A stretch of DNA of 64,000 nt from Perca fluviatilis (Eukaryota; Chordata; Actinopteri; Perciformes; Percidae). The first letter of the stretch is position 1; each line of letters begins with the position of its first letter. The stretch lies in assembly GCF_010015445.1 (NCBI RefSeq), contig NC_053133.1, positions 5,496,200-5,560,199 on the forward strand, in the 5' to 3' direction. The position numbers and the translations under genes were made by a program. Shown piece after piece: positions 48,601 through 51,600 of the stretch. Under the pieces are notes generated by a model. That model ran no database searches, had not been told where the DNA came from, and saw nothing but the letters and a program-made list of their open reading frames with translations.

Positions 48601-51600
48601 CTGATTGGACAGTATAACATATATAAATAAAGACAACAGGACATGTTCTACTGATTGGACAGTATAAAATATATAAATAAAGAGAACAGGACATGTTGTA
48701 CTGGTTGGACAGTATAACATATAAATAAAGACAACAGGACATGTTCTACTGATTGGACAGTATAAAATATATAAATAAAGAGAACAGGACATGTTCTACT
48801 GATTGGACAGTATAATATATATAAATAAAGAGAACAGGACACAACTTTTCTTTCGCTTCTCTGATTGGTTCAGTGTGTTGTCTATTTCTTGACTTACACT
48901 GTCACTCTGTCGAAATATACACACACGTGGTACGCTCCATAGTCACGTAGTGGACCCGTGTGCTGACGTGCACTAACATGTACAAGTGGCACGGTAACTG
49001 GCCAATGAAACAGGATCATTACAGCGTTTCAAGCGGACTCTAAATCAAACACTACTAAGCCACACAGCCAACAGACGGGACGCAGCGCTCCACAACATAA
49101 ACTACATATTGCATACTTATTGTGACACTTTCGATATATTGCGATAAGGATATTGAGTCGATATACTGTATCTTGCACCCCTAGATATAATATTGGGCAA
49201 CGTGATATTGCGATAACAATGTTGAATTGCCTTGTTGCTGAAATGTGCTATAGAAACGAGACAAAAAAACTGTCCAACTTCTCCTCCCTACAGTGCTTAA
49301 CCAGCCTTTAGATACAAATAATTAAAGTTAAATTAAAGAGAGAAGAGCTTGGGAAGTAAACCAAGAGCTTATTCATTATTTTACCTACTGTTAAAAAAAG
49401 CAAATACAGGTTAATCTCTCATACACTACTCTTTTTGCACTTGCTCCGTTTACTTGAAGTTTTTATTTTTGTATTCCTCCTGAAAGTGACTTTATTTTAT
49501 TGTTTGATTGATAGCCTACATCTGGCTTCAGGTTAGGGCTGGGCGATATATCGATATAAACAAATATATCGATATATTTTTAAATGAGATATGGAATTAG
49601 ACCATATCGCATATATCGATATAGTTCAAATGTGATCCTTGCTCCCATAGATATGTCGCCGTGAGGTTCTAAACATACGTCAAAACCCGCCGCCATCTTG
49701 GAACAGGGGGCCGAAGCATTCAGATCAACGCTAAAGATGCCGGACTTTTGTACTGCTTAATTATGTTCGATAGAGGAAATGAAAAGAACAAACCGCAATG
49801 GATAACATTTAACAGGTGACAATGTGTTTTATGATTATATATGCCGCCGACCAGCAATCTGAGCTCCGGCGTAGCGGGAGGCGGAGAGCCCGTGGCCGGC
49901 CGCAGCGTCTCTTCCCCGGGCAAAAACACAGCTCCCGCTGCTGCGCCGGTCCCCGCTGATCCAGATCGGACCAGCCAAAGACAGAGTGGTGATCGGTAGG
50001 ATCTTACACGTAGTCCAGGACGAACTGTATGTCGATATCGGCGGAAAGTTCCACTAAGTTTGCCGGCGGCAGGCGGACTGAAAGAAGCTACAGCGGGGCA
50101 GCGACCGTCTGCCGCTGCAGGATCTGGAGCTCAGTGCCCGTTAAAATTACATGTAACGCTTAAATACATACAGAAATAAATAGTGGAGGAATGAGCCTGG
50201 ACATTTCAGTCTGTTTAAACTTCACCTTGAAGCAGAAACTCTTAGTTCAGAAGGGTGAAGTTTCCGTTTGGACTCAGATCTGTGAACCGATCATAATAAA
50301 TATTCTTTGTATTAACACATTAATTAGTTTCTTTGTTTTGTAGTCGATAGTTCATCTTTTAGTTTACTTAAGTGGAAGCAGTATCAAGTGGAAGAATGGG
50401 ACTATAACCTAGGCTTACAGGCATGAGGCATTACATTTTGAACAAAGTAGATTATATTAATATCAAAAGCTTAATTGACCTTTGGAACGAATCACAAATA
50501 GCCTATGGAGCTTTGATTTCAAAAAGTTACTCCTGTTATACAGTATTTAGGTTTACATTTTATTGTTATTTGAACAGCTGAGCATTTAATCATGAACCAG
50601 GTGAAGAAACCGGTTTATTATTTATTTGATTTTGCAACTGTTTCTATGAAACTACTTGTGACATGTCATATTTGATTTGGGCTTTGACTGAACATTTGCT
50701 CTCAATTCGCGGAAAAAAATATCGGGATATATATCGTATATCGATATTCAGCCAAAATATATCGGGATATGACTTTTGGTCCATATCGCCCAGCCCTACT
50801 TCAGGTTGCACTAAAAATTAATTTTACTTGAACAGTGCAGTTTTAAATAATTTTAATAAATAGAGATTTGAACCTTGTTGAAATTTGTTTTGTGTAAATT
50901 GTTAATAATTGAGCAATGGGAAAATAGGGAAATTTGGGACAGCCCTAGTATCACATGAGGACTTTGGACTCATTGGGTCTTGCCATCTTGAACCGCATCA
51001 GAGACGTGCCCACAGCTCCGTACAAAGCGGACCAAAAGCCTATTGTGTGTCTGCTGACGAGGGCCGTAGGAGATATTTGGCATTTGGGTCCGAGATTTCT
51101 CTGAAGTACAGCTGCATTGTTCTCCTCGCAGTACGGATCTCAGTGTGTCGCCTATTCTCGATCGATCGACACCCCTCGATGTTCACACAACTTCATCTGT
51201 TTTGGTCTAGAGGACAGAGGTTCTTTAGTCCGGTCTGTTCATTTATTTGTCTGTTACTTGCAGGATATCTAAACTAACTTTTGCATAGTTCAGTGAAAAT
51301 GGGTGGAAGGTTTGCCTAAATTTTGTGGAAACTAAGTAGCAGATAATTACTTCTAGTTCTCCTTTTTCTCTTCTTCCAGGCGTTCTTGGAGATGGGGACG
51401 GAGGAGACGGCCATCACAATGGTTAACTACTACACCACTGTAACTCCGCACATCCGCAATGTCCCTGTCTTTATTCAGTACTCCAATCACAAAGAACTCA
51501 AAACTGATGCTGGCAATCAGGTTGGTAGAGCCAGACTAACAGACCAAACACTACAACCGTTGTTTCATCATCCCAGCTACAGCTCCTGTGCCCCATCAGT

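What the first reader, a model, noticed from the sequence alone, without database searches (positions are those of the whole stretch)
49534..50798. A second, hAT-like transposon carries an overlapping mrps28 fragment
The element has hAT hallmarks (8-bp CTTCAGGT duplication, TAGGGCTGGGCGATAT ends) yet holds an MRPS28 core reading GPAKDRVVIGRILHVVQDEL and GGKFH, then QDLELSAR, then the same ~165-bp UTR as the foldback. Two element types sharing one captured gene within 17 kb implies sequence exchange between elements, nested insertion, or repeated capture of a common mrps28 retrocopy. The intron-free join would suggest an RNA intermediate.
Basis: partly seen in the sequence, partly recalled or inferred. 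Interest (0 to 1): 0.86.

Follow-up and report, generated by a model that had tools for sequence, protein, structure and literature searches.

The report
Fish transposon carrying captured mrps28
A decayed cut-and-paste transposon in an intron of a ptbp-like gene of a likely perch-family fish carries a broken, intron-free piece of the mitochondrial ribosomal gene mrps28; zander and perch records hold relatives of that captured piece, likely spread by transposition, and a second kind of element 17 kb away holds one too, likely passed on from the first.

Summary
Observation confirmed. Window 49534-50798 is a 1,265-bp non-autonomous element with identical 16-bp inverted ends, flush 8-bp CTTCAGGT duplications and a broken mrps28 (bS1m) piece (Pfam MRP-S35, E 8.5e-21). 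A UTR-like stretch is 89% identical to one in the foldback at 31042-32911. It lies between two exons of a ptbp-like gene. New here: protein records from Sander, Perca and unnamed ENA contigs include decayed mrps28 copies. Nine of 145 fetched records leave mrps28 at the same point and continue into the same prefix (NVFYDIY or part of it, one in a shifted frame); this element has it too. In a tree, copies form one group (91/77) beside the true Perca and Sander genes, favouring one founding capture, then amplification. The foldback's piece has a substitution seen only in Sander copies (9 of 136 records) and an insertion seen in two of them, favouring transfer from a captured copy over a second capture. 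RNA origin stays inferred: the parent's introns could not be read (genome search did not complete). Closest known: animal Pack-TIRs (Pack-hAT), whose survey removed intronless captures. New variant of a known kind.

The parts
49526..49533 (.). left 8-bp target-site duplication CTTCAGGT
49534..49549 (+). left terminal inverted repeat TAGGGCTGGGCGATAT (imperfect pairing continues to about 49622)
49689..49709 (+). 21-bp GCCGCCATCTTGGAACAGGGG stretch, also in the foldback in opposite orientation (32351-32371), inside a diverged ~70-column match
   Evidence: BLASTN; score 56; largest of 300 shuffles 42
49737..49816 (+). possible remnant of a start-codon exon of the element (MPDFCTA... in one frame, ...GNEKNKPQWITFNR in another), resembling the start of P0097 (MPNCCAAYECSNDRNEK); THAP-like by recall only
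   Evidence: no THAP hit
49820..49842 (+). element sequence NVFYD.Y (MCFMIIY in another frame) fused to mrps28; this prefix or part of it stands in 9 of 145 protein records
49843..50142 (+). mrps28 coding piece, parent residues about 47 (AAFD) to 150 (QDLELTAR), no intervening intron, with frameshifts and stops
50161..50339 (+). mrps28 3'-UTR-like piece shared with the foldback (89%); about 215 bp that lie between coding part and this piece in the foldback are missing here
50340..50782 (+). right non-coding part of the element, no transposase domain found
50783..50798 (-). right terminal inverted repeat (imperfect pairing from about 50719)
50799..50806 (.). right 8-bp target-site duplication CTTCAGGT
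31042..32911 (.). second element: foldback with arms of 20-bp repeats, ends TACGGTG...CACCGTA, 6-bp GAGAAG duplication
31739..31915 (+). mrps28 coding piece in the foldback (C-terminal part to stop, ...FLGAKTDTTQLETRAALLGPAGGKGSPENQIQD*), frameshifted
32033..32219 (+). shared mrps28 3'-UTR-like piece in the foldback
51380..51520 (+). host gene exon (polypyrimidine tract-binding protein-like RRM); the upstream exon holds GLPFGKV at 47178

Best explanation
The element at 49534-50798 is a decayed, non-autonomous transposon, likely of the hAT superfamily, that carries a broken mrps28 piece and likely belongs to a multicopy family that probably arose once in the perch family, when a presumably processed (spliced) mrps28 sequence became fused to the element's 5' part and was then presumably copied by a transposase supplied in trans. 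Shown: the ends, the target duplication, the mrps28 piece without intervening sequence, the same fusion point in nine protein records, and grouping of the copies beside the Perca and Sander genes. Inferred: that the founder was mRNA-derived, that the other copies also sit in this element type, and that hAT transposase moved them. The foldback 17 kb away most likely received its piece from such a copy, by template switching or gap repair between elements, rather than by capturing the gene afresh.
For: Ends, duplication and rarity of the combination. mrps28 identity (best hits true bS1m of Perca flavescens and Sander vitreus, 83% over 91% of the query). One fusion point: P0009, P0013, P0085, P0092, P0096, P0097, P0101, P0102 and P0103, 9 of 145 fetched records, leave mrps28 at parent residue 47 or 48. 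P0085, P0097, P0101 and P0103 read NVFYDI(L)Y before it, P0102 NVFHDIYG, P0009, P0013 and P0096 begin at MFYD/Y.Y, and P0092 reads MCFMIIY, the shifted frame that the window also has. The window element is sister to P0092 (97/91, 98/89). Twenty copies plus both window pieces are one side of a branch against 15 parent genes of my choice, support 91/77, in 90% of 200 bootstrap trees; copies with the three percid parents 99/93. Foldback piece: Q for L in DTTLLEA in 9 of 136 records with a residue there, each a Sander copy; L in the other 127. Its one-base insertion (GPAGGKGSP) is in 2 of 145 records, both Sander lucioperca. UTR linked to mrps28 elsewhere: P0094 and P0102. The window DNA is continuous at SFASLL, MGPAKD and DGE|KLQRG, where gene models of other vertebrates break or end (P0006, P0090, P0142, P0144).
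Against: The parent's exon structure was never read. Some gene models break at GGKFH even in a copy (P0102), so gene-model breaks are weak proof of introns. No poly-A tail or inner target duplication was seen. Copy grouping (91/77) is short of the tool's star, and holding Sander copies with Sander parents was not rejected (AU p 0.075, named after the tree was seen). The other copies are known as proteins only, so their terminal repeats are unseen. No transposase remnant. The foldback's tie to the copies rests on one substitution, one insertion and a 33-column row whose place within the copy group is not resolved; its nearest rows by path lack the Q state.
Confidence: 0.6

Rival explanations
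1. Ordinary DNA-level Pack-hAT: the element copied genomic mrps28 by gap filling or fork switching, and the piece looks intron-free because the percid gene has no intron there or the introns were lost later.
For: This is the documented route for animal Pack-TIRs (PMC8277862). The parent's introns were not seen. No poly-A tail.
Against: Gene models of other vertebrates break inside the captured span, and the piece runs from residue about 47 through the last coding part towards the UTR with no extra sequence.
Confidence: 0.25
2. Two independent captures: hAT element and foldback each took mrps28 from the gene or from a free retrocopy.
For: The pieces start at different codons and the flanks differ. 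A separate origin of Sander copies is not rejected (AU p 0.075).
Against: Derived Q and one-base insertion shared between the foldback and Sander copies; two of the Q copies (P0085, P0101) also carry the fusion; one copy group.
Confidence: 0.2
3. The copies are plain processed pseudogenes and segmental duplicates; transposon ends around this one are incidental, from a hAT element that happened to engulf one.
For: Other copies are known only as proteins, so their ends are unseen.
Against: The same non-mrps28 prefix, or part of it, is fused at the same point in 9 records, including named records of both Sander and Perca, and the prefix lies inside the element here.
Confidence: 0.1

Closest known systems
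Animal Pack-TIRs, Pack-hAT (Tan et al. 2021, PMC8277862; abstract, found passages and sections 9 and 14 seen)
   Same: hAT-like ends and duplication around a host gene piece; a multicopy example, Pack-hAT-N8_XT of frog, is described there.
   Different: Only 4 multicopy cases were found in the reference genomes there, and intronless captures of multiexon genes were discarded by design; here the piece is intron-free and related copies span two genera.
Ssk-FB4 foldback capture in Drosophila (same paper, section 9)
   Same: A foldback element carrying a host gene.
   Different: Ssk was captured with its 5' upstream and genic region; the foldback here carries a short piece apparently taken from another transposon.
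Processed pseudogenes of mrps28
   Same: Spliced-looking coding sequence followed by 3' UTR, with a 5' truncation.
   Different: No poly-A tail or own target duplication seen; sits inside a terminal-inverted-repeat element with a shared fusion point.

Membership tests
hAT superfamily | 8-bp target-site duplication | tested here: met
   CTTCAGGT flush on both sides
hAT superfamily | short inverted ends of the YARNG...CNYTR type (consensus recalled) | tested here: met
   TAGGG...CCCTA
hAT superfamily | hAT transposase, own or from a partner with the same ends | tested here: inconclusive
   no transposase domain in nine frames read of the non-mrps28 parts (six of the right part, three plus-strand frames of the left part); expected for a non-autonomous copy; a partner search needs the genome
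Pack-TIR / Pack-hAT | host gene piece between two ends of one element with target duplication | tested here: met
Pack-TIR / Pack-hAT | several copies with one structure and different target duplications | tested here: inconclusive
   shared fusion point in 9 of 145 protein records; their ends are not visible
Pack-TIR / Pack-hAT | capture not an intronless retroduplicate (filter of the 2021 survey) | tested here: inconclusive
   piece is intron-free; parent introns only inferred
processed pseudogene | introns of the parent missing | tested here: inconclusive
   one search gives indirect breaks only
processed pseudogene | poly-A tail and own target duplication | tested here: not met
   judged by eye only: none at 50340-50350; the foldback has seven A shortly after its shared piece
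foldback element (31042-32911) | long inverted arms of short tandem repeats | tested here: met
   20-bp repeats, arms up to 95% complementary

The most novel reading that the evidence does not exclude
A perch-family hAT lineage packed an mRNA-derived mrps28 copy, multiplied it through Perca and Sander, and then handed the cargo to an unrelated foldback transposon, so a host gene piece travels between transposon superfamilies as second-hand cargo; some copies keep a 139-residue open frame that starts in the transposon and runs nearly to the bS1m C-terminus.
Probability: 0.35. Interest if true: 0.72.

Novelty: new variant of a known kind. Interest (0 to 1): 0.52.

Why it matters
How DNA transposons capture host genes in animals is argued from few multicopy cases, and the survey I read removed intronless captures. 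A family in two sequenced fish genera, with one fusion point and a second element type holding the same cargo, would let gap filling, fork switching and RNA-templated capture be told apart, and would show whether cargo moves between transposon superfamilies. It also warns annotators: a number of percid 'mrps28-like' gene models are probably transposon cargo.

Tried and rejected
Unrelated repeat as source of the shared UTR: disfavoured. Rfam at gathering thresholds: no family in the window. THAP-type start exon (a lead from memory, also suggested by P0097's start): no hit, and P0097's first 44 residues found only itself, so it stays a lead. More mrps28 homology upstream in the foldback: three stretches scored below the 95% point of 500 shuffles. 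Homology of other inner foldback parts to the element: 8 of 8 comparisons below the largest of 100 shuffles; the ~70-column GCCGCCATCTTGG region is the exception. Parent or copy DNA in genome contigs and viral contigs: none found (one pattern scan; one scan each with P0001). Papers: searches found none; others (7 of 7 listed; 15 of 137; 12 of 7,118; 15 of 52) were seen as listings with abstract openings only, and none of the listed papers looked like a report of mrps28 inside a transposon. Searches were run for the exon structure of MRPS28; from them I read only passages of PMC8067846, which do not give it. led to PMC8277862.

Full report
What is there. The window holds a 1,265-bp element at 49534-50798 with identical 16-bp inverted ends and flush CTTCAGGT duplications. 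A scan of the window for identical ends of 16 bp with flush 8-bp repeats finds this case alone. The inverted ends pair imperfectly for about 80-90 bp. The element lies between an exon reading SRVLHIRKLP...GLPFGKVTNILTLKGKNQ around 47178 and one at 51380-51520 that matches polypyrimidine tract-binding proteins (best PDB chain 'PTB-like protein L', E 2.2e-19), so it sits in an intron of a ptbp-like gene, with its mrps28 piece in the gene's orientation.

The cargo. 49843-50142 reads as mrps28 from parent residue about 47 to 150, with stops and frameshifts. Pfam gives MRP-S35 at E 8.5e-21, and mitoribosome bS1m chains match at E 6.5e-23. A UTR-like piece follows at 50161-50339. The foldback at 31042-32911 holds a shorter, overlapping piece, 31739-31915. 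Its own matches are weak (one frame: Pfam E 0.31; PDB E 0.13), but it aligns to the first element (43 of 51 columns) and has the same UTR piece (167 of 187 columns). About 215 bp between coding part and UTR in the foldback are missing in the first element (coordinates). Readings of the foldback's early UTR also end 5 of 145 protein records (P0025, P0096, P0100, P0127, P0135).

Relatives. Three protein searches (the last listed the best 120 of 136) gave 145 distinct records. Best named matches are true bS1m of Perca flavescens and Sander vitreus. Twenty-two records look like decayed copies by my count: 12 of Sander lucioperca, 2 of S. vitreus, 4 of Perca fluviatilis and 4 from unnamed ENA contigs. 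Nine of the 145 leave mrps28 at residue 47 or 48. Five read NVFYDI(L)Y or NVFHDIYG before it, three begin at MFYD.Y or MFYYIY, and P0092 reads MCFMIIY, a shifted frame that the window also has. The window element has TGDNVFYD.Y there. The named fused records are from Sander lucioperca (P0085, P0097, P0101, P0102) and Perca fluviatilis (P0103).

One origin. A tree of 37 rows puts the copies, without Sebastes P0095, in one group (91/85) beside the three percid parents, and the window element with P0092 (97/91). With the foldback piece added and P0095 left out, 20 copies and both window pieces are one side of a branch against 15 parents (91/77; 90% of 200 bootstrap trees), and percid parents plus copies are 99/93. 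Several rows are long or under half filled, the foldback row at 17%. Holding Sander copies with Sander parents, against Perca rows and outgroups, costs 24.3 log units but is not rejected (AU p 0.075). So one capture before Perca and Sander split is favoured, not proven.

The foldback's piece. In DTTLLEA it has Q; of 145 records, 127 have L, 9 have Q, and 9 have no residue there. The 9 with Q are Sander copies (8 S. lucioperca, 1 S. vitreus), and two of them (P0085, P0101) carry the fusion. Its one-base insertion giving GPAGGKGSP is in P0127 and P0128 only (2 of 145). The piece is therefore most simply derived from an already captured copy. Against this, its nearest rows by tree path are copies with L (P0009, P0013, P0018), though by identity it is P0135, which has Q (84% over 32 columns). 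Outside mrps28 the two elements share only a diverged region around GCCGCCATCTTGGAACAGGGG, in opposite orientation (score 56, largest of 300 shuffles 42).

RNA or DNA. The window DNA is continuous across points where gene models of other vertebrates break or end (SFASLL in P0006, MGPAKD in P0090, DGE/DGKK in P0142 and P0144), which suggests parent introns there. But models also break at GGKFH in both a full-length gene (P0094) and a copy (P0102), so such breaks are weak evidence. I saw no poly-A tail or inner duplication. I keep RNA origin as likely, not shown. That the human gene has three exons is recalled, from no call.

Known and new. Tan et al. 2021 (PMC8277862) report 370 Pack-TIRs in 100 animal genomes, 208 of them with hAT, 4 multicopy, and discarded intronless captures of multiexon genes; they also describe a foldback capture, Ssk-FB4. 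The present family fits Pack-hAT in build and differs in an apparently spliced cargo, related copies in two genera and a second element type with the same cargo. I found no report of it among the papers listed by the searches named in Tried and rejected.

Limits. The window's own genome could not be searched, so copy number, other copies' ends, the parent gene and the autonomous partner are open. The species is inferred as percid from the copies, not known.

Noticed in passing
window 6473-7756 with 12118-12387: A possible second 8-bp-duplication element (GGCAAAGG, ends TAGTGATG) sits where a related stretch at 12118-12387 is nearly uninterrupted, so the latter may be its empty site.
   Followed up: no
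window 13093-15772: 249-bp inverted arms, 96% complementary, 2.2 kb apart; an inner pair TGTATTCGTGTC with TATTAATA on both sides at 13428-15447.
   Followed up: no
window 31042-32911: Foldback with ends TACGGTG...CACCGTA and a 6-bp GAGAAG duplication; 6 bp with TA...TA ends recalls the IS3EU group (recalled, untested).
   Followed up: partly
window 48339-48930: Minisatellite of about 50-bp units 0.6 kb upstream of the element.
   Followed up: no
P0009, P0013 (ENA records): 139-residue open frames that start in transposon-derived sequence (MFYD.Y) and run through mrps28 almost to its C-terminus, with W in place of the second G of GGKFH.
   Followed up: partly
P0095 (Sebastes umbrosus): An mrps28-like record that falls outside the percid copy group, so possibly an independent copy.
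   Followed up: no
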